A stretch of 64,000 bases of DNA from Candidatus Sulfurimonas baltica (GTDB taxonomy: Bacteria; Campylobacterota; Campylobacteria; Campylobacterales; Sulfurimonadaceae), in the NCBI RefSeq assembly GCF_015265455.1, contig NZ_CP054492.1, positions 2,666,001 through 2,730,000 of the forward strand, in the 5' to 3' direction. Under the pieces are notes generated by a model. The model was not told the origin of the DNA. It ran no database searches and was given only the letters and a program-made list of their open reading frames with translations. How positions within the stretch are numbered: position 1 is the stretch's first letter; every line of letters begins with the position of its first letter. The position numbers and the translations under genes are program-made. This document shows, one piece after another, positions 1,686-41,248 of the stretch.

Positions 1686-3018
1686 TTAAAGCTTTTTGAA
1701 AAAAATCAACTATATCGTCTACATGTAGATTCATTTTTTTTGCATCCTTGCACTCAAGTAAAATTCTAAGCTTATTCTCTGTTCCTGAATAACGAATAAG
1801 ATGACGAATATTTTTTTCATCCAATTCTAACAACTTAGCTTCCAGCCCCTCAATCTTTTTTAGTGGTTTTTTATTTTTTATATTTATATTTACCAGCTTT
1901 TGAGGATATAGGGGAAACGGGCGAAGAGCCTCTGAAGCTTTTTGATTTGTTTTTATCAAAAGAGAGAGTGTTTGAAGTGCACTCACTAAGCCATCTCCAG
2001 TTTTTGCATAGTCACTTGTTATTACATGTCCGCTCTGCTCTCCGCCAAAGTTAATCCCCTCTTTTTTCATAATCTCTAAAACGTTTTTATCTCCAACATC
2101 AGATCTAAACAGTTTAAGACCTTTTTCCTTCATAAAATCATCCAAGCCTTGATTGCTCATAACAGTAGAGACTATACCGCCCCCTCTTAAAGTGCCATTA
2201 TCATTCATATACGAACCAAGAGCACCCAAAAGCTGGTCCCCGTCAACTATTTCACCTTTCTCATCTACTATAACCAGTCTATCTGCATCACCGTCAAGAG
2301 CTATACCTAAATCTGCTCTGTACTTAACAACAGCTTCGCGTAAATCTTTGGTGTGAAGTGCTCCACACCCCTCGTTTATATTAAATCCATCCGGTTTATT
2401 ATGTAAAACAATAACGTCAGCACCCAGCTCTTCTAAAACAGTAGGACCAACAATATATCCTGCACCATTAGCTGCGTCCAAAACTATCCGCATACCTTTT
2501 AGTGAGATATCTCTAGGAAATGAATTTTTTAGCTGAACAATATAGCGGCCGACTACATCATCAATTCTTTTAGCTTTTCCTATATTTTTTCCGGTAGTTT
2601 GCGCGTCTTGAAGCTTTTCATCATTGAAGTAGATATTTTCTATCTCCTGTTCGGCACATAAAGAGAGTTTATCTCCCTGTCCGTCAAAAAATTTAATTCC
2701 ATTATCTTCATAGGAGTTATGTGATGCACTAATCATAATACCTGCATCACAACGCATATTTTCAGTGATAAAAGCTATTGCCGGGGTTGGCATTGGACCA
2801 ATTTGTACAACATCATAACCAATAGCCGTCAATCCGCTGACTATTGCATTTTCTATCATATATCCACTTCTGCGTGTATCTTTTCCAACCAAAATTTTAT
2901 TAGTTTTAGCGCGAGTTTTAAAGTAAATTCCAGCAGCCATTGCCACTTTCATTGCTAACTCTGCACTTAAAAAAGTACCAGCCTCACCTCTGACTCCATC
3001 TGTTCCGAATAATTTCAT
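1678..3018 (-). CDS. glmM: Phosphoglucosamine mutase
   Basis: Interconverts glucosamine-6-phosphate and glucosamine-1-phosphate on the way to UDP-GlcNAc for peptidoglycan and LPS. From ATG 3018 the protein is 446 residues, the usual family length, and begins [14 protein letters not shown], the standard N-terminus. A longer frame reaching 3066 would add 16 residues unlike the family, so I reject it. The phosphoserine loop SASHN is at about residues 97-101, the metal-binding loop DGDADR is mid-protein, and the C-terminal phosphate-binding loop is [10 protein letters not shown]. Upstream is only a weak GGA-type ribosome-binding site. It leads a glmM-lspA pair. Near its 3' end Leu-His-Val is written as the palindrome CTACATGTAG (1719-1728). 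Confidence 0.95.
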
Positions 3019-3164
3019 ACATAATTCCATAATATTTAAGTGAAGTATTTTAACATAATTATCCAAATTATGCCCAAATCATAAAATTCTCCTTGTCTTT
3101 AACTTAATTTTAATTATATTTAAGCTAATATTCTGCACTAAAATTTAATGAGAAGGACTCATAC

Positions 3165-3425
3165 ATGGCAAATCACAAGTCATCAATTAAGAGAATTCGC
3201 CAAACTATCGTTCGTACAGAGCGTAATCGTTTCTACAGAACTCGTCTTAAAAACATTGTAAAAGACGTTCGTTCTGCAATCGAAGCAGGCAATAAAGAAG
3301 ATGCTACATCAGCAATGACAGTAGCTAACAAACAAATTCAAAAATTTGTAAGCAAGGGTATCTTAAAAAAAGAGACTGCTGCTAGAAAAATTAGTCGTCT
3401 ACACAGAGCTGTAAACGCAATATAA
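3165..3425 (+). CDS. rpsT: 30S ribosomal protein S20
   Basis: Small-subunit ribosomal protein that binds 16S rRNA. It has 86 residues, very basic, starting [20 protein letters not shown] as in S20 proteins and ending with the conserved HRAVN. A strong AGAAGGA ribosome-binding site lies 9 bases before the ATG. It is divergent from glmM and sits 13 bases before prfA, a pairing common in Campylobacterota. Confidence 0.97.
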
Positions 3426-3438
3426 GGTTAACAATTAA

Positions 3439-4506
3439 ATGTTAGCCGATAAACTAAATCCGTTTATCAATCGTTATAATGAACTTGGCGTTATGCTGAG
3501 TTCACCTGACATAACTTCCGACATCAAAAGAATGACAAAACTCTCCAAAGAACAATCTTCACTTTTAGCAATCGTCAACAAAGCAAAAGAATACAAATCA
3601 GTTATTGCACAAATTGCTGAATCTAAAGAGATGTTGAGTGATCCAGAGATGATAGATATGGCAAAAGAAGAGCTTAAAGAGTTAGAACCTCAACTTCCAA
3701 TTATGGAAGAAGAGATTAAACTTTTGCTTTTACCAAAAGATCCAAATGATGATAGAAATATCATTGTTGAGCTTCGTGCTGGAGCTGGTGGAGATGAAGC
3801 TGCTATCTTTGTTGGCGATCTTTTCGATGCCTACACGCGCTATGCAGATGTAAAAGGGTGGAAGGTTGAGCTTTTAAGCACATCTCCATCTGATGCAGGT
3901 GGATTTAAAGAGGTTATTGCACTTATTAAAGGTGATCAGGTTTATAGTAGATTGAAGTATGAAGGTGGAACTCATCGTGTTCAACGTGTTCCTGCAACAG
4001 AGTCACAAGGTCGTGTTCACACTTCAGCAATTACAGTCGCGGTTATGCCTGAAGTTGATGACGTTGAGATACAGATTAATGAAAATGACCTTAAAATCGA
4101 TGTTATGCGTTCATCTGGCTGTGGAGGGCAAAGTGTAAATACAACAGATTCTGCTGTTAGAATAACACACTTGCCTACTGGTTTGGTTGTAACAAACCAG
4201 GATCAAAAGTCTCAGCACAAAAACAAAGAAAAAGCTATGAAAGTTCTAAAAGCCAGACTTTTTGACCTAGAAATGCGAGAGGCACAAGCAAAAGACAGTG
4301 CAACAAGGTCAGCCCAAGTTGGAACTGGAGATAGAAGTGGAAGAATAAGAACATACAATTATCCACAAAATCGTATTAGCGATCATAGAATAACTTTGAC
4401 ACTTTATAGATTAAATGAGATTATGCATGGTGGACTTCTCGATGAAGTTATTGACAATCTTATAGCAGATCATCAAGCTAAAATTGTTGAAGCTGCAGGG
4501 CTCTAG
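3439..4506 (+). CDS. prfA: Peptide chain release factor 1
   Basis: Recognises UAA and UAG stop codons and triggers peptide release. It has 355 residues, the usual length. The catalytic GGQ is in [17 protein letters not shown] at about residues 229-231. The codon-recognition segment reads [19 protein letters not shown], with PAT in the position of the RF1 tripeptide anticodon region (PxT type, not the SPF of RF2). It is read in tandem with rpsT. Confidence 0.97.
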
Positions 4507-4533
4507 TCTCCAATAGACTAGGCTTTAGTGCCT
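4504..4533. terminator. Possible bidirectional terminator between prfA and dapF
   Basis: Two small inverted repeats lie back to back between convergent genes: TAGTCT-N5-AGACTA (4504-4520) and AGGC-N6-GCCT (4520-4533). AAATTTT follows on the plus strand. The stems are short, so this is a weak call. Confidence 0.35.
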
Positions 4534-5281
4534 AAATTTTCCACTCTGTTTCAAAAACTCTCTTAACCTTACCCTTAAAAGTAATAGTTTTGTCATTCAT
4601 CCCCAGATAAAGTGTATCTCCACTTTTTGGATAAACCTCAATATCGCCACTAATTTTTTTCTCCATCAATGCTCTGTAAAAACAAGCAGCCATTCCTGTA
4701 CCGCATGCTAAAGTTTCATCTTCAACACCACGCTCATATGTTCTAACTCTTAAATTATTTCCATCAACAAAAGCTATATTTACATTTGCATTATATTTAT
4801 ATCTAAGTTCTCTAGCTTCTAGAATGTCAAACTCTTTTATATTCTCTGTAAAGCTGACCATATGAGGAACACCGGTATCTAGTTTCCACCAGTTTTTTCC
4901 ACCAAATATTATATCTTTTTCTAAAATCTTTGGCGGGGTAAGTTCACTTAGGACCATCCCACTATTTGCATCAACTTCAGCATTTATTACACCAGCTTCA
5001 GTTAAAAAACTCATATTTTTAGGAGCTAGTTCATTATAAAAAGCATAATGAGCACAGGCACGACTTCCATTTCCGCACATCTCTGCAGTGCTTCCATCAG
5101 AGTTATAAAACTGCCACTCAAAATCATATTTATCGTGTGGAACTATAACTATAAGACCATCAGCTCCTACACCCTCTTGTCTATTGCAAACTATTTTTGC
5201 TAATTTACTTCTATCCGCTTTAACATCTGAGTGAAATATAACAAAGTCATTTCCATTTGCGCTATATTTTGATACTTTCAT
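4532..5281 (-). CDS. dapF: Diaminopimelate epimerase
   Basis: Converts LL- to meso-diaminopimelate for lysine and peptidoglycan crosslinks. It is a PLP-independent two-cysteine racemase. Both catalytic cysteines are visible in their motifs: EMCGNGSRACAHYAF at about residues 68-82, and ETLACGTGMAAC at about residues 189-200. The protein has 249 residues and starts MKVSKYSANGNDFV. It is convergent with prfA and lies downstream of coaE on the same strand. Confidence 0.95.
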   Translation of the reverse strand: MKVSKYSANGNDFVIFHSDVKADRSKLAKIVCNRQEGVGADGLIVIVPHDKYDFEWQFYNSDGSTAEMCGNGSRACAHYAFYNELAPKNMSFLTEAGVINAEVDANSGMVLSELTPPKILEKDIIFGGKNWWKLDTGVPHMVSFTENIKEFDILEARELRYKYNANVNIAFVDGNNLRVRTYERGVEDETLACGTGMAACFYRALMEKKISGDIEVYPKSGDTLYLGMNDKTITFKGKVKRVFETEWKI

Positions 5282-5288
5282 TTTTTTC

Positions 5289-5882
5289 CTATAAATACTT
5301 TTCTTTAATCATATCTACAAACTTTTCACACTCCTGCTGGAGGTGCTTTAAGTTTTTAGAATTGTCTATAACCCATGTGGCTCTTTTTTTCTTCTCATCT
5401 ATCGGCATCTGAGAGGCAATTCGTCTGAGTGATTCATCTTTTGAGTAACCATTTCTCTTCATAAATCTCTCTAACTGAATATCGCTTGGGGTATAAACAA
5501 CCACACTCTCTTTTATATCGTATGCACCGTTTTCAAAAAATAGAGGGATGTCTATGAGATACGGGAACTTGAAACTATCCTGCTTAATGCTTCTTGATTC
5601 AATTTCAGCCCTTATTTTCGGATGAAGAAACTCCTCTAATTTTTTCTTAGCATCAGCGTTTGAAAAAACCAAACTTCCAAGTTTGGCTCTGTCAACTTTT
5701 GAGCCATTAACATATTCATCACCAAAATTTTCTTTAACCCAGGAAGAAGAGGCATCCAAGATCTCATGAGATATACTATCGGCATCTATAACCCTCATTC
5801 CATTGAGGGCTAAAAGGGACGCTACAGTACTTTTACCTGTAGCAATTCCACCGGTTAAGGCAATAGCATACTTAAATGCCAT
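5289..5882 (-). CDS. coaE: Dephospho-CoA kinase
   Basis: Last step of coenzyme A synthesis, phosphorylating the 3'-hydroxyl of dephospho-CoA. The P-loop GGIATGKST is at about residues 11-19, and the conserved DAD (VIDADSISHEIL) follows. Its 197 residues fit the family. Its ATG overlaps the stop of the upstream spermidine-synthase-like gene by one base, so the two genes are coupled, with dapF 7 bases downstream. Confidence 0.94.
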   Translation of the reverse strand: MAFKYAIALTGGIATGKSTVASLLALNGMRVIDADSISHEILDASSSWVKENFGDEYVNGSKVDRAKLGSLVFSNADAKKKLEEFLHPKIRAEIESRSIKQDSFKFPYLIDIPLFFENGAYDIKESVVVYTPSDIQLERFMKRNGYSKDESLRRIASQMPIDEKKKRATWVIDNSKNLKHLQQECEKFVDMIKEKYL

Positions 5883-6427
5883 TAGTTTTTAACAATACCT
5901 AAATACTCTTTACGGATATGATTACCCATAGCAAAAGAAGCTACATGTACATCACAGTTGTAATAGCTTAACCCATCAATCATATCTGAACGGTGAAGAT
6001 TAATATCCGCTGTCGGGTGATACTCTTTAGAGCTGAGAAGCGCAGTTGAGCAGTTGCCAAGATTGTATGGCATAATCACTTTAAAGTATCTTCCTAAGGT
6101 TTTCATTAAGCTCTTGTTGGCTTCAGTCTCATCTAAAGCTGGATGAACTGTAACAAACTGCCCATCATCTTGTAAAACACGGTTTACATGTGAGATAAAT
6201 GCTGCATCAGCCTGCATTTCAGAGATAACTACATCATACGCTTTGTCATCTAAAGCGCTAATTGCCTCAAGCTTGCAAGAGATAACTCTTGAACCAACTT
6301 CTGCATGTCTTGCAAGCTCTTCACTTAAAAGTTCTGCTTTCTCACTGATAATTAAAACATTTTTTGGATCTTTATTGGTACACAAAGGGACATGTACCAT
6401 CATTTCTTGGTAAGTAAATTCATTCAT
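5882..6427 (-). CDS. Shortened spermidine-synthase-like protein, probably without the cofactor loop
   Basis: The 181 residues align by eye with the C-terminal two-thirds of spermidine synthases (SpeE): YQEMMVHVPL near the start resembles the YHEMMTHVPL of that family, and the end (LSYYNCDVHVASFAM) resembles the YYNxDIHxAAFALP ending seen in Campylobacterota SpeE. The N-terminal beta domain is absent. The glycine-rich loop that should follow VLIIGGGDGG reads VLIISEKAELLSEE instead. A ribosome-binding site (TTAGGAAAT) sits just before this ATG, so the short form looks genuine rather than mis-started. Aminopropyl transfer activity is doubtful. It may be a non-catalytic or repurposed Rossmann protein. 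Confidence 0.6.
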   Translation of the reverse strand: MNEFTYQEMMVHVPLCTNKDPKNVLIISEKAELLSEELARHAEVGSRVISCKLEAISALDDKAYDVVISEMQADAAFISHVNRVLQDDGQFVTVHPALDETEANKSLMKTLGRYFKVIMPYNLGNCSTALLSSKEYHPTADINLHRSDMIDGLSYYNCDVHVASFAMGNHIRKEYLGIVKN

Positions 6428-6530
6428 TTTTATATTTCCTAAATTTTTAAAAAGATTTTATCATATTTGTATTAAATAGCATTAAAAAGCATAGCAATTA
6501 GATATATTTAAGTATTAATTGATAATTAGA

Positions 6531-6536
6531 TATAAT
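6531..6536 (+). promoter_or_regulatory. -10 box upstream of the DUF2892 gene
   Basis: TATAAT in an AT-rich stretch 32 bases before the ATG at 6569. No clear -35 is visible, which is common for the main sigma factor of Campylobacterota. The ribosome-binding site AGGATATAAA follows. Confidence 0.5.
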
Positions 6537-6568
6537 TTCATCTATATTTAAATCAATTAGGATATAAA

Positions 6569-6757
6569 ATGAATTATAATAAAGTAAAAAGTACATGTAG
6601 AGTTGTTCGTATTGGAGCAGGTGTAGCATTAATTACTACAGGTGTAGTAACAGGCAATGCATGGTTTTATTTAGGTGTTGCACCTTTAGTTGCAGGCATT
6701 GTCAACTTCTGCCCAATATGTATCGTAAGTAAAAAGTGCGACCTTCCTAGTAACTAA
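6569..6757 (+). CDS. Small membrane protein, DUF2892 (YgaP-like) type
   Basis: The 62 residues contain two hydrophobic helices separated by a short turn. The layout VVRIGAGVALITTGVVTG, then GVAPLVAGIVNFCPICIV, fits the DUF2892 transmembrane domain that in YgaP-type proteins is fused to a rhodanese. Here it stands alone. CPIC at residues 49-52 and a further Cys near the C-terminus are notable. A good ribosome-binding site (TTAGGAT) is present. It lies just upstream of the FccB-like gene, but an operator-like palindrome separates them, so they may be separately transcribed. Its exact role is unknown. Confidence 0.75.
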   Translation: MNYNKVKSTCRVVRIGAGVALITTGVVTGNAWFYLGVAPLVAGIVNFCPICIVSKKCDLPSN

Positions 6758-6788
6758 AACTCAACAGTAAGAATCAAGTAAGTCAAAA

Positions 6789-6806
6789 TATGATAATATT
6801 ATCACA
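6789..6806. promoter_or_regulatory. Operator-like palindrome, site A (TATGATA-N4-TATCACA)
   Basis: Inverted repeat 23 bases before the start codon of the FccB-like gene, containing the perfect 14-bp palindrome TGATAATATTATCA. It shares arms and spacing with the sites at 11276, 48609 and 12989. Its place so close to the ribosome-binding site suggests a repressor site over the promoter; this is inference. Confidence 0.55.
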
Positions 6807-6829
6807 AAAAAGTTTTACAAGGGGTTTAT

Positions 6830-8170: not shown

Positions 8171-8193
8171 ACTTGATTTATGCTCTAATAAGG

Positions 8194-8199
8194 TATAAT
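8194..8199 (+). promoter_or_regulatory. -10 box for purM
   Basis: GGTATAATTCC lies 35 bases before the purM ATG and is the typical extended -10 of this lineage. A TTGATT at 8173-8178 is only 15 bases upstream, so its role as -35 is doubtful. Confidence 0.5.
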
Positions 8200-27714: not shown

Positions 27715-28634
27715 TCAAGGGCCTTTGAAATTTTTTCTAAATTGCTTCTCATAATATCTTCATAACTAAGGTTTTTCTCTGCTTCATCAGCCGTAATATT
27801 TCCAAGAGGCTGGAGAGTATTAACACTTACCTTCGCTTCAGTGGCTATGCTTTTAATAGCTTTATCGCTTGCGAAACTCTCAAAAAATATGGTTGAGATA
27901 TTGTGCTCTTTAACATGCTCAATCAAAGTCAGCATACTTTTTGCGCTCGGCTGCGCATCAGGAGAGAGACCGCTAAGAGCCTCTATATTAAAGCCATAAA
28001 TGTTTGAGATATATGAAAAAGCATTGTGGTTTACGATAATTGTAGAGACTCTACATGTAGAGAGTTTTTCTTTATAATCTTTGTGAAGTCTTTTTAGCAT
28101 ATCAACATAAGTATCTCTATTTTTACTATAAAGCTCTCTGTTAGCCGGCAAGAGTGCTATAAGTTCTTTGGTAATAAACTCTGTCGCTTTTATCATATTT
28201 TGTAAATCAAGCCAATAATGGGGATCAACTTTGCTGTCAGAATGGTTATGATTCTCTTTGTCCTGCCCATCTTCTATAAAGTTTTTTAACTCTACATGTA
28301 GGCTCATGTCGATAGCTTTGTTTTTAAAATCAAAACCATCTATCCATGGCTCCAGACCTGCTCCGCTGTAAACTACCAAATCACTTTTATAGAGCTTTAT
28401 CACCTCTTTGGGCGAAGGCTCATAGCTATGTGCGTCAACACCCAAAGGTAAAATTAAAAAAGGTTCTGCTGTATCGCCGACAAGATTTATTGCTATATCA
28501 TATAAAGAGAATGTGCTAAGTGCAATAGTTGGCTTATGAGTGGTCTCTTTTATTTTTGCATCTTGCTTCATAACTATTAACTGAAAAATAAAAAGTATAA
28601 TCACAGCAATAAATATGGTATTTTTTAAGTTCAT
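27705..28634 (-). CDS. znuA: Metal-binding periplasmic protein (ZnuA-like)
   Basis: Solute-binding protein of cluster A-I for zinc or manganese, 309 residues, with an N-terminal hydrophobic anchor. Metal ligands are visible: His in GVDAHSYEPSPKEV, His in DPHYWLD, His in IVNHNAFSY and a late Glu/Asp. The short HNHSD loop before DPHYW is the histidine-rich loop typical of zinc binders, but short. First gene of znuA-C-B-bioC. Zinc rather than manganese is inference. Confidence 0.82.
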   Translation of the reverse strand: MNLKNTIFIAVIILFIFQLIVMKQDAKIKETTHKPTIALSTFSLYDIAINLVGDTAEPFLILPLGVDAHSYEPSPKEVIKLYKSDLVVYSGAGLEPWIDGFDFKNKAIDMSLHVELKNFIEDGQDKENHNHSDSKVDPHYWLDLQNMIKATEFITKELIALLPANRELYSKNRDTYVDMLKRLHKDYKEKLSTCRVSTIIVNHNAFSYISNIYGFNIEALSGLSPDAQPSAKSMLTLIEHVKEHNISTIFFESFASDKAIKSIATEAKVSVNTLQPLGNITADEAEKNLSYEDIMRSNLEKISKALECR

Positions 28635-28727: not shown

Positions 28728-29048
28728 ATGACAACCGGTTTTTTACTTATTATTCAAATCATTTTAGTAGTGGTACTAGTGATTGCAGTACTACTGCAAA
28801 AAAGTTCAAGCATTGGCCTAGGTGCTTACAGTGGCTCGAATGAGTCTGTGTTTGGAGCAAAAGGTCCAGCTAGCTTTTTGGCAAAAACAACATTCCTTAT
28901 TGGCTTTTTATTTGTTGCTAACACCATAACTTTAGGCTACATGTACTCATCAGCTAGAGAAGAATCTGTTGTTGACAACATGGTTGAGTCTACAAATGTA
29001 GTAGCTCCATCTGCAACTACTACACCTGTTGCACCTGCTACAAAATAA
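28728..29048 (+). CDS. secG: Preprotein translocase subunit SecG
   Basis: Small membrane subunit of SecYEG. The 106 residues include two hydrophobic helices joined by the typical loop LLQKSSSIGLGAYSGSNESV followed by FGAKGPASFL. The C-terminal tail is rich in Ala, Thr and Val, as in other Campylobacterota SecG. Transcribed ahead of frr. Confidence 0.93.
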   Translation: MTTGFLLIIQIILVVVLVIAVLLQKSSSIGLGAYSGSNESVFGAKGPASFLAKTTFLIGFLFVANTITLGYMYSSAREESVVDNMVESTNVVAPSATTTPVAPATK

Positions 29049-29713: not shown

Positions 29714-29715
29714 AA

Positions 29716-31582: not shown

Positions 31583-33045
31583 TGCAGAGTGCCTTCTCAA
31601 GCCTTGACTGGCTGGTATTTATCTCTTACTTTCTTCTTCTTGGCGTCACTTCCATAATTTTAAGTAAAACCAAAATAACATCTTCAAGAGAGTACTTTTT
31701 AAGTCCTACTGCAATGCCCATGTTTGCTGTTGCAATCTCAGTTCTTGCAACAAGCCAATCGGCTGCTACATTCTTGGGTGTTCCAGAATTTGCTTATGCT
31801 CACGACTTTACATTTATAGGCTTTTACTTCTCTGCTTTGCTCGCTGTTATTTTTGTAGCATTTGTGCTAATTCCAAAATATTACGAAATGAAGGCAGTGA
31901 CAGTTTATGAGCTATTGCAAAAGCGTTACGGAGAGAGTTCAAAAAAACATGCTGGAGTGATGTTTCTAATTGGTCGAGTATTGGCGAGCGGAGCACGTCT
32001 GTACATTGGAGCACTCGCTATCTCTATGATTCTATTTGGCGATATTATTTTCTTACATGTAGCGATTTCTATTTTAGTTTTAATGCTTGGAGCACTCGCT
32101 TACACCTACTTCGGCGGTGTCCGTTCCGTAATCCTTAGCGATATTATCCAAGCAGTTACTTACGTTGGTGCAGGTGTAGCGGTTTTTGTTTTTCTTTATT
32201 ATTCACTGGAGAACATAGATATATTTGCCACGCTAAAAGAGCACAATAAACTAAACTTTTTAGACACAAGCATTGATGGGAAGTTTAGCCTTATAGGGCT
32301 TTTAAGCGGTTGGTTATTACTAAATATTGCGGCATTCGGACTTGATCAGGATATGACCCAAAGAGTTCTTACATGTAAGGATAAAAATGAGGCTGCTAAA
32401 TCTTTGATTATCTCAATTGCTTTAACCATCCCCATTGTTCTCCTCTTTTTAGGTATAGGCGCACTTCTCTTTCTTTTTTATCTGCAAAGCGATGTTACGC
32501 AGAGTTTTGAGGGTGAGAAAATAACCATTTTTATGTACTATATTTTAAATGAGATGCCTGCGGGTCTGCGAGGTTTGGTTACAGTAGGAGCAATTGCGGC
32601 GGCACTCTCAAGCACTAACTCTGTTCTTGGTGCTATGGCTTCAGTTGCAGTTGAAGATCTCTACAAACCGTGGAAGTTAAAGCAGGGTAAAATTGATGAG
32701 TACCATTTTGTAAAAGCGTCCAGATTAGCGGTACTTCTCTTTGCTCTACTGCTCTCTATAATGGCTATGGTTAGTTACTTTTGGCAACACTACAGTGACC
32801 TCTCTCTCATTAGCTTCGCTCTTGGTGTTATGACTTTTGCATATACTGGTCTTTTAGGCGTCTATTTTTCGGCAATCTTTACCTCTCGCGGAAATGAAAA
32901 AACTGTTCTTTTAGGACTTATAGGGGGATTTGTTTCTGTTTTAGCACTTCAGCCCTACACTTTTGGAATCAGCATCGGCTTCTCATGGCAGATGGTTATT
33001 GGGACTTTGGTTTCATTTTTGATTGTCCAAAGTGCAAAGAGATAA
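31582..33045 (+). CDS. Sodium/solute symporter (SSS family)
   Basis: Inner-membrane transporter of 487 residues with about 13 hydrophobic helices. ATSQSAATFLGVPEFAY near residues 51-67 and GLLSGWLLLNIAAFGLDQDMTQR at about 237-259 are typical of SSS sugar/substrate symporters, as is LSSTNSVLGAMASVAVEDLY. Placed between NagZ-like hydrolase and AnmK, it is a good candidate importer of anhydro-MurNAc or a related wall sugar, replacing AmpG. That substrate is inference from context. Confidence 0.82.
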   Translation: MQSAFSSLDWLVFISYFLLLGVTSIILSKTKITSSREYFLSPTAMPMFAVAISVLATSQSAATFLGVPEFAYAHDFTFIGFYFSALLAVIFVAFVLIPKYYEMKAVTVYELLQKRYGESSKKHAGVMFLIGRVLASGARLYIGALAISMILFGDIIFLHVAISILVLMLGALAYTYFGGVRSVILSDIIQAVTYVGAGVAVFVFLYYSLENIDIFATLKEHNKLNFLDTSIDGKFSLIGLLSGWLLLNIAAFGLDQDMTQRVLTCKDKNEAAKSLIISIALTIPIVLLFLGIGALLFLFYLQSDVTQSFEGEKITIFMYYILNEMPAGLRGLVTVGAIAAALSSTNSVLGAMASVAVEDLYKPWKLKQGKIDEYHFVKASRLAVLLFALLLSIMAMVSYFWQHYSDLSLISFALGVMTFAYTGLLGVYFSAIFTSRGNEKTVLLGLIGGFVSVLALQPYTFGISIGFSWQMVIGTLVSFLIVQSAKR

Positions 33046-33101: not shown

Positions 33102-34187
33102 ATGAGTGAATTATATATTGGTGTAATGTCTGGAACATCTCTTGATGGTGTTGATGTAGTTTTATGTAAGATAGACTCTAACTCTTGCGAACTTGTATTT
33201 TCATGCGAATACCCCTTTGATGATGATTTAAAAGAGGATATCTTAGGTGCAATAAACACATCTACAACCCTTAAAGCCATAGGCGAGATTGATACCCGTT
33301 TGGGCAAACTATATGCAAACTATATAACCGCTTTTATGGATCACTACAAAATCAGCCAAAAAGATGTCATCGCTATCGGTCTACACGGGCAAACGCTTTG
33401 GCATGAGCCAAATGGCGAGTATCCTTTTTCTATGCAGCTTGGAAATGCCAGCGTTATAACAGCACAAACAGGTGTTAGTGTTGTTAGTGATTTTAGACAA
33501 AAAGATATAGCTCTCGGCGGTCAAGGTGCACCTTTTGCACCCGCCTTTCATCAAGAGATATTTTCCAATATTAACCGCAAAACGGCCGTTTTAAATATTG
33601 GTGGAATGGCAAATATAAGCATTTTAGGTGAGAAGCTTCTAGGGTATGACACTGGGTGCGGGAATGTTCTTTTGGACTACTGGATTTTTTATAACCACGG
33701 TAAAGTATATGACAAAGACGGGGAGTGGGCAGAGTCCGGACATGTAAGCGCAGAGCTACTCGACTCTATGTTAAGTGAGCCATACTTCAAAAAAGAGGCT
33801 CCTAAAAGCTGTGGCCGCGAACTCTTCAATGCAAAATGGCTTGAGAAACATTTAGAAAATTTCCCACTTGTGATTAGTGAAGATGTTCAGGCAACACTTT
33901 TAGAGCTAACCGCACTTACAATAGCTAACGAGGTGAAAAAAACCTCAACAGAGCTACTAATAGTTTGTGGCGGAGGCGCAAGGAACGCTGCACTTATGAA
34001 AAAGCTACATGTAGAACTAAAAGATATTGATGTAATGCTAAGTGACAAATACGGCGTAAGCAGTGAGTTTATGGAAGCGATGGCATTTGCGTGGCTTGCC
34101 TACAAACGTATCCACAAAGAAAAAGTTGAACTCTCTTCAGTTACAGGTGCTTCAAGAGACTCTATTTTGGGTTGTATATATGAATAA
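33102..34187 (+). CDS. anmK: Anhydro-N-acetylmuramic acid kinase
   Basis: Opens 1,6-anhydro-MurNAc and phosphorylates it to MurNAc-6-phosphate. I start at ATG 33102 (MSELYIGVMSGTSLDGVD); three extra codons upstream are possible. The ATP loop GVMSGTSLDGVD at about residues 7-18 and NIGGMANIS plus GYDTGCGNVLLD are hallmarks, as is LIVCGGGARNAALM near the C-terminus. The length is 361 residues. A -10 box TATAAT sits at 33062-33067. The gene overlaps the next by 8 bases. Confidence 0.93.
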   Translation: MSELYIGVMSGTSLDGVDVVLCKIDSNSCELVFSCEYPFDDDLKEDILGAINTSTTLKAIGEIDTRLGKLYANYITAFMDHYKISQKDVIAIGLHGQTLWHEPNGEYPFSMQLGNASVITAQTGVSVVSDFRQKDIALGGQGAPFAPAFHQEIFSNINRKTAVLNIGGMANISILGEKLLGYDTGCGNVLLDYWIFYNHGKVYDKDGEWAESGHVSAELLDSMLSEPYFKKEAPKSCGRELFNAKWLEKHLENFPLVISEDVQATLLELTALTIANEVKKTSTELLIVCGGGARNAALMKKLHVELKDIDVMLSDKYGVSSEFMEAMAFAWLAYKRIHKEKVELSSVTGASRDSILGCIYE

Positions 34188-34627
34188 AATAAAAGAGTGG
34201 CTCTCTACTTCAAAATACAAAAATCATAAGCTTGAGATAGCCTCTGCTGATGCAAGCTTTAGAAAATACTACAGACTTAGTAAAGATAATGAGAGTGTAC
34301 TATTAATGGACTCATCACTTGAAAAAGAGTCATTAAAACCATTTTTAGACGTAACCCAAAGACTTCTACATGTAGGAGTTAACGCACCTGAGATTTTAGA
34401 GCAAAATCTAGAGGATGGGTTTTTGATTATTAAAGATTTTGGAAACACTCACTACTTAAATGTGCTTAACCAAGAGAACTTCAAAACTCTCTACTCAAAT
34501 GCCATTGAGACCATAATAACAATGCAAAAAGCAGATACTTCCGGACTACCGATTTATGACAAAGCTTTTCTACATGTAGAGATGGATTTGATGCAAGATT
34601 GGTACCTGGAAAAACTTCTACATGTAG
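34005..34627. repeat. Cluster of the palindrome CTACATGTAG
   Basis: Four of the ten exact copies found in the window lie here, at 34005, 34366, 34570 and 34618, inside anmK and the amgK-like gene. All are read in frame as Leu-His-Val. The other copies are at 1719, 28051, 28292, 38509, 38668 and 40741. Confidence 0.8.
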
Positions 34628-35774: not shown

Positions 35775-35847
35775 TACCTAACTCAGACAATGAGAGGTAC
35801 AATGTCTTCAAAAGCAGACATTAAATTTATTATTCAGAGTGTAAACA

Positions 35848-37353
35848 ATGACAATTAAACAAATTATATTTCGCATTGCAATTATTCTACTTATAGTAGA
35901 AGCTATCATAATGCTAGTTCTGGATTTTTTGGCATTAAATTTGGACTGGATAACAGAAGCGATTGTTGATGCCCTATCTTTAACTATATTTGCTACGCCG
36001 ATAATATACAAGTTGGTAATAAAGCCGTTTGTGTTAATGAGAGAAACAGCAGAGAACAGAGTTACTTATTTGGCATATCATGATGAGTTGACATCCCTTG
36101 CAAACAGAACAAAACTTCTGGAGTGGCTCGACCATAGTATAAAAACATCATACGGAAAAAATAACATCTCAATAATATTGTTAGAATTAGACCGCTTTAA
36201 AGATATACAGGACACCTTTGGACATGCGATAGTAGATAATCTTGTTCTAGATGTTGCTGAGAGATTAAGATGCAATGTAAGCGGTGTACATCTATTTGCC
36301 AAAATCGATACCTACATGTTTGCCTTTGTTGTTGAGAACATCCTCTCTGATGATGATATATATCTAAAATCAAAACAGATTATCACACTTGTGCAAACAC
36401 CGATTAGCTGCAAAAACGGTCACGCTTTCAATATAGAGGCGAGTATAGGAATTAGCAGATTTCCAAAAGATGCCTCAAACAAGACCGACCTTCTAAAATA
36501 CGCCTACACTGCCATGAGACAGGCTAAAACAATCAGCAAAGATAAAATAAGTTTTTACACTCAATCTCTTACAGAGATGTCACAAAGACACCTTACGCTT
36601 GAAGAGGACCTCAGACATGCCATTGAGAATAATGAGTTTCACCTCCTCTATCAGCCGAAAATTGATGCGCTCACAAATAAACTCGTTGGCGTTGAAGCGC
36701 TAATACGATGGGAACACCCGAAAAATGGGCTTATCAATCCAGTAGACTTTATCCCACTGGCCGAAGAGACGGGACTCATCATACCTATTGGGGAGTGGGT
36801 TTTACAAGAGGCACTCAAACAACAGGAGATATGGCAAAAAGATGGCAAAGAGCCAATTGTTATGTCCATAAACCTCTCGGGCAGACAATTGCAGATAGAG
36901 CATATTGATCAGATTTTAAGGGTCTTAAACCTGACACCGGTTCCTAAAAAATATATAGATTTTGAAATAACAGAGACATATCTTATGGAGGATGCTCTTT
37001 TGTCGCAAATGCTTCTTGAAAAACTTCACTCCACCGGAGTCTCTTTGTCGATGGATGATTTCGGCACAGGCTACTCCTCTTTGGCTTATCTAAAACGTTT
37101 CAAAGTAAATACCCTTAAAATTGATAGAGCACTTATACAAGACATAGAAGAGGATAAAAATGATTTTGCAATTGCAAAAGCGATTATCGCTATGGGTCAC
37201 ACGCTTGAGATGAAGGTTGTAGCAGAGGGTGTTGAAACTGAAGAGCAGTCAAGAATGCTAAAGCAGATAAGCTGTGACTATATTCAGGGGTTTTATTTCT
37301 CAAGACCTGTTCATCCTTACGCTGTCTACTCAAGCGATAATTACACTTACTAA
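35848..37353 (+). CDS. GGDEF/EAL protein with intact EAL and degenerate GGDEF
   Basis: Membrane-anchored cyclic-di-GMP phosphodiesterase of 501 residues. Two N-terminal helices (about residues 5-55) are followed by a GGDEF domain (about 75-235) whose signature reads DTYMF in the frame AKIDTYMFAFV, so it cannot make c-di-GMP. The EAL domain (about 245-490) keeps VEALIRW, SINLSGRQL, EITETYLM, MDDFGTGYSS, LKIDRALI, VVAEGVET and QGFYFSRP, all catalytic positions. It follows murU after 73 bases and precedes the lytic transglycosylase by 6 bases, so it may be co-transcribed with wall genes. Confidence 0.87.
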   Translation: MTIKQIIFRIAIILLIVEAIIMLVLDFLALNLDWITEAIVDALSLTIFATPIIYKLVIKPFVLMRETAENRVTYLAYHDELTSLANRTKLLEWLDHSIKTSYGKNNISIILLELDRFKDIQDTFGHAIVDNLVLDVAERLRCNVSGVHLFAKIDTYMFAFVVENILSDDDIYLKSKQIITLVQTPISCKNGHAFNIEASIGISRFPKDASNKTDLLKYAYTAMRQAKTISKDKISFYTQSLTEMSQRHLTLEEDLRHAIENNEFHLLYQPKIDALTNKLVGVEALIRWEHPKNGLINPVDFIPLAEETGLIIPIGEWVLQEALKQQEIWQKDGKEPIVMSINLSGRQLQIEHIDQILRVLNLTPVPKKYIDFEITETYLMEDALLSQMLLEKLHSTGVSLSMDDFGTGYSSLAYLKRFKVNTLKIDRALIQDIEEDKNDFAIAKAIIAMGHTLEMKVVAEGVETEEQSRMLKQISCDYIQGFYFSRPVHPYAVYSSDNYTY

Positions 37354-37359
37354 AGGAAC

Positions 37360-38340
37360 ATGTTGTTAAAATCCATACTTATTCTATCTCTGAGCACTCT
37401 TCTTTTTGCTAAATATACAAACTGCGAATTTCAAAATAAAGACTATATAGACATCTGCGAAAAAGTTGTAAAAAACGGTGTTTCTCATGAGTATGCAAAT
37501 AAATTTCTCCTCTCATATTTCAAAACAAAAAAATTCGATGAAGTGAGCTATAAGTATCTACAGCCGAAGTATATCAAGACTCATAAAAAAAATGAAAAAA
37601 AAGCCAACAATGTTTTAGTTAAATATATACCTGACATGATTGAGCATCTCAATATGTACTCAGAAGTTTATGATTATTCGGAAAAAAAGTATGGGGTAAA
37701 TCGTGAGGTTATAGCTGCTATTTTAATAAAAGAGACAAGACTCGGGAAAATAAAGCCGACCCATGATGCGTTTATAGTATTCAACACTTTGGTAGTGCGG
37801 ACAAAGCCAAATACTAGTCGTGAAAAATGGCTCCTAAACATGGGCAAGACAAATATGGCGTCTATTATCATGTACTGCTATAAAAAGGGTGTAACCCCAG
37901 AGAGTTGCAACCTCCCTAGCTCTTACGCCGGAGCTGTAGGAATACCGCAGTTTATGCCAAACAGTTTTATCTATGCAGAGGGGTATAAAAGTAAAGTTGC
38001 TGATTTGACAAATATGGAAGACGCAATAGTCTCTGCAAGTAAATTTTTAAACAATAAAGCTGATTTCTCTAAGCTGATAGAGTGGGATATTATGCCTGAT
38101 ATTGAAGATATAGAATCTCAATGGTATGAGTATGAGTTTAACAACGAAAATGCCTCATTTGTTTATGAGAAAAACACAAAGTCCGGAAAAGTTTATGACT
38201 GCTTCACATGTGGAAAAGATAAGCTGGGATACCTTAAAGAGTATACTAAAAAAATCATGCGCTATAACAACTCATCTAACTATGCCGTTGGCGTAATGCG
38301 CTTGGCCTACGAATCACATAAGGGTCTTAGTAAAGAGTAG
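37360..38340 (+). CDS. MltB-type lytic murein transglycosylase
   Basis: Cleaves glycan strands to give 1,6-anhydro-MurNAc ends, the substrate class of the NagZ/AnmK steps encoded upstream. The 326-residue protein has a signal peptide ending near LFAKY. The catalytic Glu is in AILIKETRLGK at about residues 122-132 and the second family motif SYAGAVGIPQFMPNS at about 187-201. CFTCGKDK in the C-terminal half is a lineage feature of unknown role. AAAGGAAC is the ribosome-binding site. The 3' end overlaps the convergent mutarotase gene by 14 bases. Confidence 0.88.
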   Translation: MLLKSILILSLSTLLFAKYTNCEFQNKDYIDICEKVVKNGVSHEYANKFLLSYFKTKKFDEVSYKYLQPKYIKTHKKNEKKANNVLVKYIPDMIEHLNMYSEVYDYSEKKYGVNREVIAAILIKETRLGKIKPTHDAFIVFNTLVVRTKPNTSREKWLLNMGKTNMASIIMYCYKKGVTPESCNLPSSYAGAVGIPQFMPNSFIYAEGYKSKVADLTNMEDAIVSASKFLNNKADFSKLIEWDIMPDIEDIESQWYEYEFNNENASFVYEKNTKSGKVYDCFTCGKDKLGYLKEYTKKIMRYNNSSNYAVGVMRLAYESHKGLSKE

Positions 38341-39175
38341 CTTTGAGGGTGTGTGACTTATTTGGTTTTATCACTCTTGCATCTTCAAATGCGTTAGCAG
38401 ACTCTATGCAGACCATGTTTTTATAAGCATCATCATTCATGGCGCTCATTCTCTTACATTTATCTATCCACGGGTTCCAAACGACTATAGAGCTAGAGCC
38501 TTCATTCTCTACATGTAGAGTTCTGTTTGTATCTTTTAATATAACTTCATCCGAGACCTCTTGATAAACTCTGTCAACCTCTTGGTTAAAAGTTATATCT
38601 GCGTTTTGAATCTCTCTTTTGTAAGTAAGTGCATCCAAATAAGGCTTTTTATCTAAGCCCTCAATAGCTACATGTAGAATGTCTGAAACTCTGAAATATG
38701 TGTGAAGAGCTTGAGTTATCTCAAAAGGTTTATCATCTATATTTGTTGTTTTCAACTCCATAACAAGTCTATCTGAGATCCTTACATGTAACTCAAGTTC
38801 AAACTTATACGGCCATAGTTTTAAACTCTCTTTTGTATATTGCAGTTTAAATGTAATCTCTGTTGTATTAGCGTCTGCTTCGTTAGTGTTAGTTAGCTTC
38901 CACAAAGCCGTTCTTGCAAAACCATGCTGAGGCAAACTCTTATCTTTGTTTAGCCCAAACCATGGCCAGCAGATTGGAACTCCGCCACGTATGGATTTTG
39001 CCATCTCAAAATCGCTAGTATCACTCAGCCAAAGGAGAGGCTCTTTTGAGTTTTGTTCATAGTGAAAAATGTGCGCTCCCTGAAGTGCAATTTTTGCAAC
39101 TGCAGAAGAGTTTTCAATCTCTATATATTCAAAACCGTTGGATAGTTTTTTATACTCAATCAATGCATTTTCCAT
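38327..39175 (-). CDS. D-hexose-6-phosphate mutarotase-like protein (YeaD family)
   Basis: Aldose-1-epimerase fold, 282 residues. IRGGVPICWPWFGLN at about residues 62-76 and LPQHGFARTALW are YeaD-family motifs. His in GFAR and HTYFRV (about 163-168) and Glu in VCIESANAFED are likely catalytic residues. It overlaps the end of the MFS gene by 16 bases and closes a minus-strand operon. Two copies of CTACATGTAG lie in it (38509, 38668). Confidence 0.82.
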   Translation of the reverse strand: MENALIEYKKLSNGFEYIEIENSSAVAKIALQGAHIFHYEQNSKEPLLWLSDTSDFEMAKSIRGGVPICWPWFGLNKDKSLPQHGFARTALWKLTNTNEADANTTEITFKLQYTKESLKLWPYKFELELHVRISDRLVMELKTTNIDDKPFEITQALHTYFRVSDILHVAIEGLDKKPYLDALTYKREIQNADITFNQEVDRVYQEVSDEVILKDTNRTLHVENEGSSSIVVWNPWIDKCKRMSAMNDDAYKNMVCIESANAFEDARVIKPNKSHTLKATLY

Positions 39176-40428
39176 GATGTGATTTTATGCCACTTCATAG
39201 CGTATGCCAAAATGAAAGAGTAGCAGATTATCCCCATCAGATATGTTGATTGCATATCTCCGCTCACATGTGCTATTTTTCCAAAAACAAGAGGGAGGAT
39301 AGCTCCACCTGCAATTGCCATAATCAAAAGGGCACTCCCCTGAGCCGTATATTTTCCCAAGCCCTCAAGTGCAAGAGGCCAGATGGTAGGCCAGACCAGA
39401 GCGTTTGCAAAACCCAATAGCGCTACGAATGTTACCGTGTCCGGCAGAGTTCTAATACCGCTCCACCCCCACAAAAGCTCTGAAACCAAACTGCTATCTG
39501 CCGATGAATACACAACGCCAAAGAGAAATAAAATCCCCAACAGTGCTGAGCTGATTAGTGCTTTTTCCTGCGAAAGATATTTTGGTATAAACAAAACTCC
39601 AATAAGATATCCAAACACCATAAAAATCATAGTGAATGAAGTTAAAGAGGTGAAATTTTTCAAACCCAAGAACTGCCCGTATAACCCTATGGTATCCCCG
39701 GCTATAACCTCAATACCGACATAAAAGAAAAGTGCAGTTGCTCCCAAAACCACACGTGGAAACTGAAATATACTGCTCTTGTCTGAGTGTTCATCTTTTT
39801 CAAACTCAATCTCTGGAAGTGATGAGTATTTAACTAAAGCAATAAGCCCTGTCAAAACAGCCGCCATAATAATATATGGAATAATAAGACGTGAAGAGAG
39901 AGACTCTTTTGTTTCGTTGGAAAGATTCTCTAGTGAACCAATATCTGATAGTATAACAGCGGTAAAAAGAAGCGGTACAAGAACACCAGCACTTTTGTTT
40001 ATAAGTCCCATTATGCTTATTCTCATCGCAGCACTCTCTATAGGTCCTACCAAAACTATATATGGATTTGACGCCGTTTGCAGTATTGTAAGTCCTGTAC
40101 CGAGTATAAAAAGAGCAAGCAAAAACATTGCGAAACTTGCACTCTGAGCAGCAGGTATAAAAACAAGAGAGCCTACAACCATAACACCCAAACCTATCGC
40201 CATCCCATTTTTATAGCCGGTTTTATCAAGCATAAAGGACATAGGAAGAGCCATAACGGTATATGCGATATAAAAAGCAAAAGTAACAAAGAGTGCCTGA
40301 AACTCATTGAGGTCACAAATGACTTTTAAAAATGGGATAAGTGAACCGTTGAGCCAAGTAACAAAGCCAAAAATAAAAAATAAAACTCCTATAATTACCA
40401 TAGGTACAAGAGTAGACCTGTTATCCAT
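39160..40428 (-). CDS. MFS sugar permease (FucP/GluP type)
   Basis: Twelve-helix major-facilitator transporter, 422 residues. GFVTWLNGSLIPFLK at about residues 21-35 and LGTGLTILQTASNPYIVLVG at about 109-128 are the marks of the fucose/glucose/galactose-proton symporters. Its start overlaps the HAD gene by 8 bases and its end overlaps the mutarotase gene. A sugar importer next to a mutarotase and a phosphatase, facing wall-recycling genes, suggests uptake of a hexose or wall-derived sugar. Substrate unknown. Confidence 0.85.
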   Translation of the reverse strand: MDNRSTLVPMVIIGVLFFIFGFVTWLNGSLIPFLKVICDLNEFQALFVTFAFYIAYTVMALPMSFMLDKTGYKNGMAIGLGVMVVGSLVFIPAAQSASFAMFLLALFILGTGLTILQTASNPYIVLVGPIESAAMRISIMGLINKSAGVLVPLLFTAVILSDIGSLENLSNETKESLSSRLIIPYIIMAAVLTGLIALVKYSSLPEIEFEKDEHSDKSSIFQFPRVVLGATALFFYVGIEVIAGDTIGLYGQFLGLKNFTSLTSFTMIFMVFGYLIGVLFIPKYLSQEKALISSALLGILFLFGVVYSSADSSLVSELLWGWSGIRTLPDTVTFVALLGFANALVWPTIWPLALEGLGKYTAQGSALLIMAIAGGAILPLVFGKIAHVSGDMQSTYLMGIICYSFILAYAMKWHKITSWKMH

Positions 40429-41248
40429 TTTTAAGCCCTTTTAGATATTTTGCAACTGCGTCTTCGTCGTTTGTGTGGGGAAGCACTATGTCTGCCAACT
40501 TTTTAACGCCCTCTTGTGCATTTGCAACCGCCACGGAGACCCCCGCCAGTTCAAACATACCGACATCATTGAAGTTGTCCCCAAAAACAGTCAGTCGGCT
40601 TAGATCAAAACCTACGTATTCGCTAACACTTCTAATGCCGTGGGACTTGTCTGCATCTTTATGCAATATAGTCAAAAAATAGCACCCAACATAAGCTTCC
40701 GGCGCAAGAATATATTTTAAACTATTTCCGAATATTTTCTCTACATGTAGAGCCAATTTTCGCAACATTTTTTCCTCACCCATATAAACAATCTTAAAGT
40801 TCTCATCCATGGCACGTATATCTTTGCACTCAACCAAGTTGTCATCTTCTGAGTATCTACTCAGCACCTCTTTTTGGTGTTCATTTAAAATAACAGAGAA
40901 TAAAAATGCTTCATTAAGATTTTTATCCGCAAGTGCCAAAACAAAAGGGTAGATTCCAAATTTGCCACCCTCATCAATAATGGCATCTGCTACCTCTTTG
41001 TTTATAAACTTTGTCTCTATTATCTTCTTATCCATTGTGGCAATAAGAGCACCGTCAAGCAAAATCATAGGTGCATTGACATGTATGTTCTTTAAAAATT
41101 GTGCGGTTTTTTTGTATGTTCTGGCAGTTGCCACACTAATGATAGATTTCTCAGAGAAGCTATTCCAGACCTCTTTTGTAAAAGAACTCACAGAGAGGTC
41201 ATTTCGTAAAAATGTATGATCGAGATCTGTTATATAAATATTCTTCAT
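40421..41248 (-). CDS. HAD-superfamily IIB (Cof-type) phosphatase
   Basis: Start set at ATG 41248 (MKNIYITDLDHTFLRND), preceded by TTAGAGAAG; a frame reaching 41272 overlaps the antiporter gene. The 275-residue protein has the HAD nucleophile loop ITDLDHTFL (Asp8, Asp10) and the C-terminal metal loop FGDNFNDVGMFELAG. It is probably a sugar-phosphate phosphatase. By context it might remove phosphate from an imported hexose-phosphate or from MurNAc-6-phosphate, the one step missing from the recycling run at 30.5-35.8 kb. That is speculation: known MupP is a different HAD subgroup. Confidence 0.75.
   Translation of the reverse strand: MKNIYITDLDHTFLRNDLSVSSFTKEVWNSFSEKSIISVATARTYKKTAQFLKNIHVNAPMILLDGALIATMDKKIIETKFINKEVADAIIDEGGKFGIYPFVLALADKNLNEAFLFSVILNEHQKEVLSRYSEDDNLVECKDIRAMDENFKIVYMGEEKMLRKLALHVEKIFGNSLKYILAPEAYVGCYFLTILHKDADKSHGIRSVSEYVGFDLSRLTVFGDNFNDVGMFELAGVSVAVANAQEGVKKLADIVLPHTNDEDAVAKYLKGLKNG

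What the first reader, a model, noticed from the sequence alone, without database searches (positions are those of the whole stretch)
1719..40750. Palindrome CTACATGTAG seeded inside genes, nearly always read as Leu-His-Val
Ten exact copies: 1719, 28051, 28292, 34005, 34366, 34570, 34618, 38509, 38668, 40741. All lie within coding sequence. Nine are in the frame CTA-CAT-GTA (Leu-His-Val); the one at 28051 is in another frame. Many near copies keep ACATGTA (for example 32054, 45777, 46808, 53472, 53810, 58010, 60724). With independent bases at about 35% G+C, a given 10-mer of this composition is expected about 0.07 times in 64 kb. Five copies extend to TCTACATGTAGA. Possible roles: DNA uptake signal, recognition site of a nucleoid or segregation protein, or methylation motif. 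Being palindromic and frame-compatible, it is tolerated in genes on either strand.
Basis: partly seen in the sequence, partly recalled or inferred. Interest (0 to 1): 0.75.

Follow-up and report, generated by a model that had tools for sequence, protein, structure and literature searches.

The report
Palindromic DNA uptake-like tag in Sulfurimonas
This bacterium's chromosome is peppered with hundreds of copies of a short palindromic tag, which looks like one dialect of a family of 'self-DNA' uptake tags known in two other bacterial families and apparently not described in this group; the uptake function itself is inferred, not shown.

Summary
Confirmed: CTACATGTAG occurs 10 times in the window (0.06 expected) and 229 times in the 2.74 Mb genome (reversed control 2). 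Selection acts on DNA: Leu-His-Val is itself 4-fold in excess, and 45 of 67 sampled are spelled CTA-CAT-GTA against 2.2 expected. The frame bias follows from a stop in one frame and Cys in another. The core TACATGTA (718 copies) is enriched in 6 of 29 genomes of the window's family (Sulfurimonas group) and 27 of 28 of a second family, with genome-specific flanks; none of 241 genomes of 21 other families reaches 50. Many relatives without it carry another, mostly non-palindromic tag (TCCACATGCCA, TAAACGCAG, CTCACGCA and others). Close pairs often sit just past stop codons as hairpins. Two stretches with mobile genes lack it. No methyltransferase cluster tested tracks it. This is the anatomy of DNA uptake sequences, described in Neisseriaceae and Pasteurellaceae. 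Best reading: an uptake-sequence system in Campylobacterota with many dialects, one palindromic. Uptake and receptor are untested. The paper searches made found no report of it.

The parts
1719..1728 (.). exact decamer CTACATGTAG (12-mer TCTACATGTAGA from 1718), frame Leu-His-Val; no relative aligned
28051..28060 (.). exact decamer (12-mer from 28050), other frame (Ser-Thr-Cys-Arg)
28292..28301 (.). exact decamer, Leu-His-Val; 43 relatives aligned, commonest forms KYV, EHV, KHV, KFV
34005..34014 (.). exact decamer, Leu-His-Val; 6 relatives aligned, none Leu-His-Val
34366..34375 (.). exact decamer, Leu-His-Val; 6 relatives aligned, none Leu-His-Val
34570..34579 (.). exact decamer (12-mer from 34569), Leu-His-Val; 3 of 6 relatives have Leu-His-Val and 3 have ACATGTA at the place
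34618..34627 (.). exact decamer (12-mer from 34617), Leu-His-Val; 2 of 6 relatives have Leu-His-Val
38509..38518 (.). exact decamer (12-mer from 38508), Leu-His-Val; 0 of 12 relatives
38668..38677 (.). exact decamer, Leu-His-Val; 0 of 12 relatives
40741..40750 (.). exact decamer (12-mer from 40740), Leu-His-Val; 1 of 12 relatives
5942..5949 (.). core TACATGTA
6592..6599 (.). core TACATGTA
28938..28945 (.). core TACATGTA
32054..32061 (.). core TACATGTA
32370..32377 (.). core TACATGTA
38783..38790 (.). core TACATGTA
44113..44120 (.). core TACATGTA
45776..45783 (.). core TACATGTA
46811..46818 (.). core TACATGTA
58012..58019 (.). core TACATGTA
60725..60732 (.). core TACATGTA

Best explanation
The motif is most likely a DNA uptake sequence: a short tag that the cell's competence machinery prefers on incoming DNA. 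Tagged DNA of the same or a related species is taken up and recombined, so each tag that arises by mutation spreads by biased uptake until hundreds are spread over the chromosome, in genes and between them, limited by what the proteins tolerate. The consensus here is tCTACATGTAGa with a strict inner ACATGT. It is one dialect of a set found in the window's family and a second family of the order. Most of the other tags found are not palindromic (for example tTCCACATGCCAa, tAAACGCAGc, CTCACGCag), and the palindromic one may be two overlapping inverted half-sites. Many close pairs form hairpins just past stop codons, probably as terminators. Shown here: abundance, DNA-level selection, genome-specific tags, near-equal orientation for most asymmetric tags, pairs past stops. 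Inferred: that uptake is the driver, that a minor-pilin-like receptor reads the tag, and that the pairs terminate transcription.
For: Abundance: 229 decamers and 718 cores in G000 against 2 and 70 for the reversed controls. Selection on DNA: 41 copies in genes against 2.66 in synonymous shuffles; Leu-His-Val 67 against 15.8 expected; 45 of 67 spelled CTA-CAT-GTA against 2.2 expected. Eight Leu-His-Val copies of the window had alignable relatives: Leu-His-Val is not among the forms listed at five, in 1 of 12, 2 of 6 and 3 of 6 relatives at the others. No shared flanks: 256 of 256 distinct, both strands counted. Dialects: of 81 pyrG neighbourhoods 38 are assigned a tag, 43 none; consensuses; four tags confirmed in 60-464 kb samples at z 12-59 against null maxima of 5.2-7.7 from five simulations each. 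Orientation: CTCACGCA 42/40, AAACGCAG 50/55, AAACGCCA 20/17. Close pairs: G102 33 against about 4 expected, G000 26 against about 5 (my arithmetic). Within 25 bases past a stop: the first 19 of 33 G102 pairs, 17; 25 G000 pair places, 11 (two of the 25); single cores 2 of 22 and 5 of 122; asymmetric A tag 13 of 18 distinct pairs. Stretches L143 (integrase, C5 methylase) and L151 (two transposases) have no core.
Against: No uptake or transformation data. ComEC (64 of 66 genomes) and secretin (67 of 68) are also found in tag-free genomes; ComEC has no hit in G306 (472 cores, completeness unknown) and secretin none in G249 (1019 cores, 98% complete). G125 (3 pairs, about 4.5 expected), G180 (6, about 8) and G276 (2, about 3) show no excess of close pairs; 14 of 25 G000 pair places are inside genes; of 13 pairs read from other TACATGTA genomes 4 lie within 25 bases past a stop, 6 in genes, 2 between divergent genes. 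The A tag is unevenly oriented (72/40; with/against gene 55/20), and tag E is 9/4. The tags do not all share one core. Some loci show two related variants (L001, L061, L064). Seven samples of the window's family show no clear tag. Spacing is not more even than random (G102 CV 1.19). The full decamer (229) is rarer than DUS in meningococcus (about 1900, PMC3630211). No receptor identified.
Confidence: 0.75

Rival explanations
1. A highly iterated palindrome like cyanobacterial HIP1: a solitary DNA methyltransferase recognises the core (CATG or ACATGT) and methyl-directed repair builds up the sequence.
For: Palindromic, iterated, strict inner core with graded edges, much as HIP1 is described (PMC4390886). 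That paper also reports some HIP1-rich genomes without the CGATCG enzyme, so absence is not fatal.
Against: No cluster tested tracks the tag: the 13-member D12 cluster is absent from G000, G222, G264, G171, G125 and G091 and present in tag-poor G037; of 30 best PF02384 and 30 best PF00145 frames no cluster is common to the tag-rich genomes and absent from tag-poor ones (searches list more places). Motif-rich G125 has no PF01555, PF02086 or PF00145 hit; its three PF02384 hits have frames of 504-659 aa, of type I (HsdM)-like size. Relatives carry asymmetric tags at like density. Families such as PF07669 were not searched.
Confidence: 0.09
2. Binding site of a chromosome-organising or nucleoid-occlusion protein (as SlmA, Noc or MatP; recalled).
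For: Palindromic; roughly even, 0-10 cores per 20 kb over 21 stretches.
Against: 718-1724 cores per genome is far above such systems (their numbers recalled); related genomes use asymmetric sequences in the same manner; the only tag-free stretches of 21 are two with mobile genes.
Confidence: 0.06
3. A Chi-like or KOPS-like recombination or segregation signal.
For: Short, abundant, lineage-specific sequences; the A tag is unevenly oriented.
Against: Such signals are strand-polar (recalled); the palindrome has no polarity, and tags F, B and H are near 1:1 in orientation and relative to genes. Replichore polarity was not tested.
Confidence: 0.03
4. Codon usage, codon pairs or Leu-His-Val abundance alone.
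For: The codons CAT and GTA are common (68% of His, 33% of Val codons).
Against: Synonymous shuffles give 2.66 against 41; LHV (67) exceeds its five permutations (11-21); tags also lie between genes.
Confidence: 0.01

Closest known systems
DNA uptake sequence (DUS) dialects of Neisseriaceae, receptor ComP (PMC3630211: passages and section 11 read)
   Same: Hundreds to thousands of roughly 10-12-mers per small genome; dialects; copies in genes; a stop codon in one frame of most dialects; inverted pairs as putative terminators; overlapping dyad pairs reported in Simonsiella.
   Different: Different phylum and sequences; here one dialect is a full palindrome; the tags do not all share one core; dialects change often among Sulfurimonas (tree); no ComP-like receptor was sought.
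Uptake signal sequence (USS) of Pasteurellaceae, predicted receptor PpdA/ComN (PMC12616744: start of abstract in a listing, passages read)
   Same: Short core plus less strict flanks, two described dialects, terminator-like pairs.
   Different: Core GCGG and asymmetric; two dialects, against at least seven candidate tags here.
Highly iterated palindromes of cyanobacteria (HIP1, GCGATCGC; PMC4390886: abstract, section 9 and the first part of section 18 read)
   Same: Palindrome at very high frequency; alternative palindromes replace it in some genomes.
   Different: HIP-bearing genomes generally carry cognate methyltransferases, with exceptions; no tested cluster tracks the tag here, and most alternatives here are not palindromes.
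Methylation-dependent uptake in Campylobacter jejuni (RAATTY, CtsM; PMC10046745: passages read)
   Same: Same order (placement recalled); self-recognition of transforming DNA.
   Different: There the mark is a methyl group on a degenerate six-base site; here it would be a longer sequence made frequent in the genome.

Membership tests
DNA uptake sequences (DUS/USS) | Hundreds to thousands of copies of one short tag per genome | tested here: met
   718 cores and 229 decamers in G000; up to 1727 cores in the second family
DNA uptake sequences (DUS/USS) | Dispersed, mostly in genes, no strand polarity, no shared flanks | tested here: met
   tags A (72/40) and E (9/4) are uneven
DNA uptake sequences (DUS/USS) | Dialects that vary by lineage around one conserved core | tested here: inconclusive
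   lineage-specific tags: yes. One core: within the TACATGTA genomes yes; A and P share ACATG; other tags have other centres
DNA uptake sequences (DUS/USS) | Inverted close pairs as terminator-like hairpins past stop codons | tested here: met
   G102 17 of 19 pairs, G000 11 of 25, tag A 13 of 18; but 4 of 13 in other TACATGTA genomes and no pair excess in G125, G180, G276; termination itself not tested
DNA uptake sequences (DUS/USS) | Poor in mobile or recently acquired DNA | tested here: inconclusive
   both core-free stretches of G000 carry integrase or transposases; only two stretches
DNA uptake sequences (DUS/USS) | Competence machinery in the genome | tested here: met
   ComEC 64 of 66, secretin 67 of 68; not discriminating
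DNA uptake sequences (DUS/USS) | Tag raises DNA binding, uptake or transformation | not testable with these tools
   needs an experiment
DNA uptake sequences (DUS/USS) | Cognate surface receptor (minor pilin such as ComP) | not tested
   no receptor search was made
Highly iterated palindromes (HIP) | Cognate solitary methyltransferase in tag-rich genomes | tested here: not met
   four Pfam families; G125 has only HsdM-like PF02384 hits; no cluster tracks the tag; other families not searched
Highly iterated palindromes (HIP) | Iterated sequence is a palindrome | tested here: met
   met for the window's genome and the other TACATGTA genomes; not for most tags of relatives
Chi/KOPS-like signals | Strand polarity | tested here: not met
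   orientation in sample and against genes (tag A uneven); replichores not tested

The most novel reading that the evidence does not exclude
Campylobacterota have their own uptake-sequence system, arisen apart from those of Neisseriaceae and Pasteurellaceae. It has at least seven candidate dialects that switch often among related species, including a full palindrome that would be read as two overlapping inverted half-sites by a dimeric or two-armed receptor. Each switch would act as a genetic barrier between species, and loss of the preference would let the tags decay (as perhaps in G158, G078 and G294).
Probability: 0.55. Interest if true: 0.87.

Novelty: new variant of a known kind. Interest (0 to 1): 0.8.

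Why it matters
Genome-wide uptake tags are described in two families, Pasteurellaceae and Neisseriaceae (start of the abstract of PMC7811141, seen in the listing). A further phylum with many dialects, one of them palindromic, would make the evolution of tag, receptor and species barrier testable by comparison. It could also give tag-based transformation tools for chemolithotrophs and organohalide respirers, and would show that one order uses both a sequence tag and, in Campylobacter, a methyl tag to recognise its own DNA.

Tried and rejected
Methyltransferase search: PF01555 and PF02086 in 24 genomes, PF02384 and PF00145 in 21; frames clustered (in one search only the 30 loci fetched for each of PF02384 and PF00145); none tracks the tag. 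ComEC and secretin as discriminators: present nearly everywhere, so uninformative. The D12 cluster of 13 looked promising at first (present in most genomes with moderate decamer counts) and failed when the core was counted. Other families of the order: seven genomes sampled, no comparable tag in the five of f9 and f18; the two of f11 show a milder GAAATTTC/AAATTTCA-type signal. Even spacing of cores: the first 60 in G102 have CV 1.19, not more regular than random. Literature: the decamer in three unrelated papers; no paper holding both 'DNA uptake sequence' and Sulfurimonas or 'uptake sequence' and Sulfurospirillum; wider searches showed nothing on it, but searches list only the first 20 of 667 and 34 papers. 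Only an open-licence PMC library was searched, no preprints.

Caveats of counts: G302 is the same genome as G201 (both counted) and G307 the same as G275; L324 and L334 repeat L323 and L333 and were dropped from the 18 distinct A pairs. G000 pairs: 26 places, one overlapping triple counted once, 23 read and two. The first ten G000 pairs fetched were picked by eye for symmetric loops; the rest were fetched afterwards, so the 25-place count is not selected. G102 pairs are the first 19 of 33 in genome order. Class labels used seeds chosen from the same loci and under-call: L042, L045 and L049 are labelled none, yet their genomes hold 320, 221 and 227 cores, so the change counts of the tree are rough. 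I did not look for a receptor.
Full report
WHAT WAS CHECKED. All lie in ORFs, nine as CTA-CAT-GTA and one (28051) as Ser-Thr-Cys-Arg. Six, not five, extend to TCTACATGTAGA. The window lies in a single-contig genome of 2,737,757 bases (G000), which has 229 copies against 2 of the reversed string. The nearest named relatives by pyrG are Sulfurimonas MAGs (up to 95% identity in the best segment).

DNA-LEVEL SELECTION. I took 20 spread stretches of 20 kb and with the window analysed 464 kb. It holds 46 copies: 41 inside genes, 34 of these in the Leu-His-Val frame and 7 in the Thr-Cys frame, none in the third frame, which contains the stop TAG; 5 are between genes, about as expected from the non-coding fraction. 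Synonymous-codon shuffles give 2.66 copies in genes (maximum 7 of 50 shuffles). Leu-His-Val occurs 67 times against 15.8 expected and 11-21 for its permutations, and 45 of the 67 use CTA-CAT-GTA against 2.2 expected. So the DNA motif shapes the protein. Relatives were aligned at nine of the ten copies, 6 to 43 each. At the eight of these that encode Leu-His-Val, that peptide is not among the forms listed at five (at 28292 the list covers 41 of 43 relatives), and occurs in 1 of 12 (40741), 2 of 6 (34618) and 3 of 6 (34570). The copies share no flanks (256 distinct of 256, both strands counted), so this is not a dispersed repeat.

DISTRIBUTION. In 298 genomes of the order, 12 have ten or more decamers. 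The core TACATGTA is more informative (same 298). Counting as enriched at least 90 copies and more than twice the reversed control, it is enriched in 6 of 29 genomes of the window's family (G000 718, G180 848, G125 611, G102 608, G201 221, G158 99; controls 29-70) and in 27 of 28 of a second family (104 to 1727; controls 16-74; the weakest ratio is G078, 109 to 50; the exception is G037 with 28). G229 (61 to 29) and G263 (54 to 21) are borderline. None of 241 genomes in the 21 other families reaches 50 (closest ratio of note: G289, 36 to 8). Seven further Sulfurimonas genomes reached through pyrG loci have 227 to 690.

DIALECTS OF THE CORE. Flanks differ by genome: T-C-TACATGTA-G-A in G000, CTT-TACATGTA-AAG in G171, CT-TACATGTA-AG in G102, T-TACATGTA-A in G125, loose in G180. 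In G000, substitutions at positions 2 to 4 of the core are near background (0.7-1.7 fold), while C or G at position 1 is enriched 6.7 and 3.6 fold: a strict ACATGT centre with graded edges.

OTHER TAGS IN RELATIVES. Scanning the pyrG neighbourhoods (the best 80 of 320 relatives; those over 9 kb) showed that many tag-poor relatives carry another iterated 8-mer. With fixed seeds, 38 of 81 neighbourhoods (window included) are assigned to a tag and 43 to none, several of them short; a few show two related variants (L001, L061, L064). Consensuses: tTCCACATGCCAa (A), tAAACGCAGc (B), AAACGCCA (H), tAACACGCaAc (E), CTCACGCag (F), GATGCTaAgg (D), with weaker candidates. Separate samples of 60-464 kb confirm CTCACGCA (G016 z 25, G076 z 21), TCCACATGCC (G275 z 23), AAACGCCA (G049 z 12) and TACATGTA (G000, G171, G125, G102, G180; z 27-59) against null maxima of 5.2-7.7; seven samples of the window's family (G229, G255, G238, G158, G191, G147, G034; best z 5-8) show no clear tag, and G263 is confounded by local repeats. 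A pyrG protein tree of 81 rows needs 6 changes for each of the two largest tags (shuffled mean 9.6); the palindromic label is not clustered at all (6 changes, shuffled mean 5.9), but the labels under-call it (and see caveats). The asymmetric tags F, B and H lie in both orientations nearly equally: 42/40, 50/55 and 20/17; A is 72/40, partly because one orthologous site recurs in several relatives, and E 9/4.

PAIRS AND HAIRPINS. Two cores within 25 bases of each other occur 26 times in G000, 33 in G102 and 43-60 in six genomes of the second family; the reversed-pattern control is 0 in all 17 genomes. From the core densities I expect about 5, 4 and 17-26. G125 (3), G180 (6) and G276 (2) show no excess. 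Of 25 pair places read in G000, 11 lie within 25 bases downstream of a stop codon and 14 inside genes; of the first 19 of 33 in G102, 17 lie past a stop. Single cores do so in 5 of 122 and 2 of 22. Of 13 pairs read from other TACATGTA genomes, 4 lie past a stop, 6 in genes, 2 between divergent genes and 1 at a contig edge or without a neighbour, so the habit is not uniform. The asymmetric TCCACATGCC tag forms inverted pairs in all nine distinct genomes of that dialect searched (6-45 each) and in none of G000, G016, G049 and G125; 13 of 18 distinct examples read lie within 25 bases past a stop, 2 are divergent and 2 in genes. The same organisation is reported for DUS in Neisseriaceae (PMC3630211, section 11).

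WHAT DOES NOT TRACK THE TAG. No cluster of PF01555 or PF02086 methyltransferases follows it, nor any among the 30 fetched frames each of PF02384 and PF00145: the large clusters mix tag-rich and tag-poor genomes or miss G000, G125, G171 and G102. Tag-rich G125 has no hit to PF01555, PF02086 or PF00145 and three PF02384 hits of 504-659 aa frames, the size of type I subunits; tag-rich G102 has two PF02086 and one weak PF02384 hit. Other methyltransferase families were not searched. ComEC (64 of 66) and secretin (67 of 68) are nearly universal and do not discriminate; the misses include tag-rich G306 (ComEC) and G249 (secretin), both fragmented or of unknown completeness.

MOBILE DNA. Two of the 21 stretches have no core. 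Of nine proteins scanned from them, L143 gave an integrase, a C5 methylase and an AAA ATPase, L151 two transposases beside a histidine kinase and a TonB-type receptor. This fits tags that build up slowly in resident DNA, but two stretches are few.

INTERPRETATION. Abundance, DNA-level drive, genome-specific tags, little polarity, and pairs past stop codons together match uptake sequences better than any rival I considered. The palindrome is one dialect; its half TCTACATG resembles the left part of TCCACATGCC, so it may be two overlapping half-sites, as Frye and colleagues suggest dimer-based recognition for dyad pairs in Simonsiella. That uptake drives it, and which receptor reads it, remain inferred. 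No paper in the held library combines these genera with uptake sequences under the terms used.

Noticed in passing
G000 sample L141-L160 and window: A second, longer dispersed repeat (TCGTCATTCCAA..., 16 copies of the 12-mer; GAATGACG with 35 distinct flanks among 42 counts) is scattered in the genome.
   Followed up: no
G154 and G085 (family f11), L297-L302: GAAATTTC and AAATTTCA or CAAATTTA are over-represented (G154 z 10-11, G085 z 6-7); AAATTT is one form of the RAATTY site used for uptake in Campylobacter jejuni. Could be codon bias.
   Followed up: no
G000:C1:2232070-2232110 and G180:C3:155098-155138: In both genomes a pair of cores with the same 41-base span lies inside the comEC match.
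   Followed up: no
L143 (G000:C1:380001-400000): Stretch with integrase, C5 DNA methylase and a large AAA protein, free of the core; looks like a mobile island.
   Followed up: partly
L003, L005, L018, L029, L076: Several Sulfurimonas loci share an enriched GATGC/GCATC element with different extensions (GATGCTaAgg, AGCATCTG, TAGATGCA, AGTGCATC), perhaps further dialects.
   Followed up: partly
G263, L271-L273: GGTCTTAA/GGGTCTTA (19-23 distinct flanks) beside local repeats of a GACCCCTG type.
   Followed up: no
G158, G078, G116, G294: Intermediate core counts (99, 109, 342, 104) beside genus mates with 608 (G158's), 657-1727 (G078's and G116's) or 28-491 (G294's), perhaps decaying tags after loss of the preference.
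   Followed up: no
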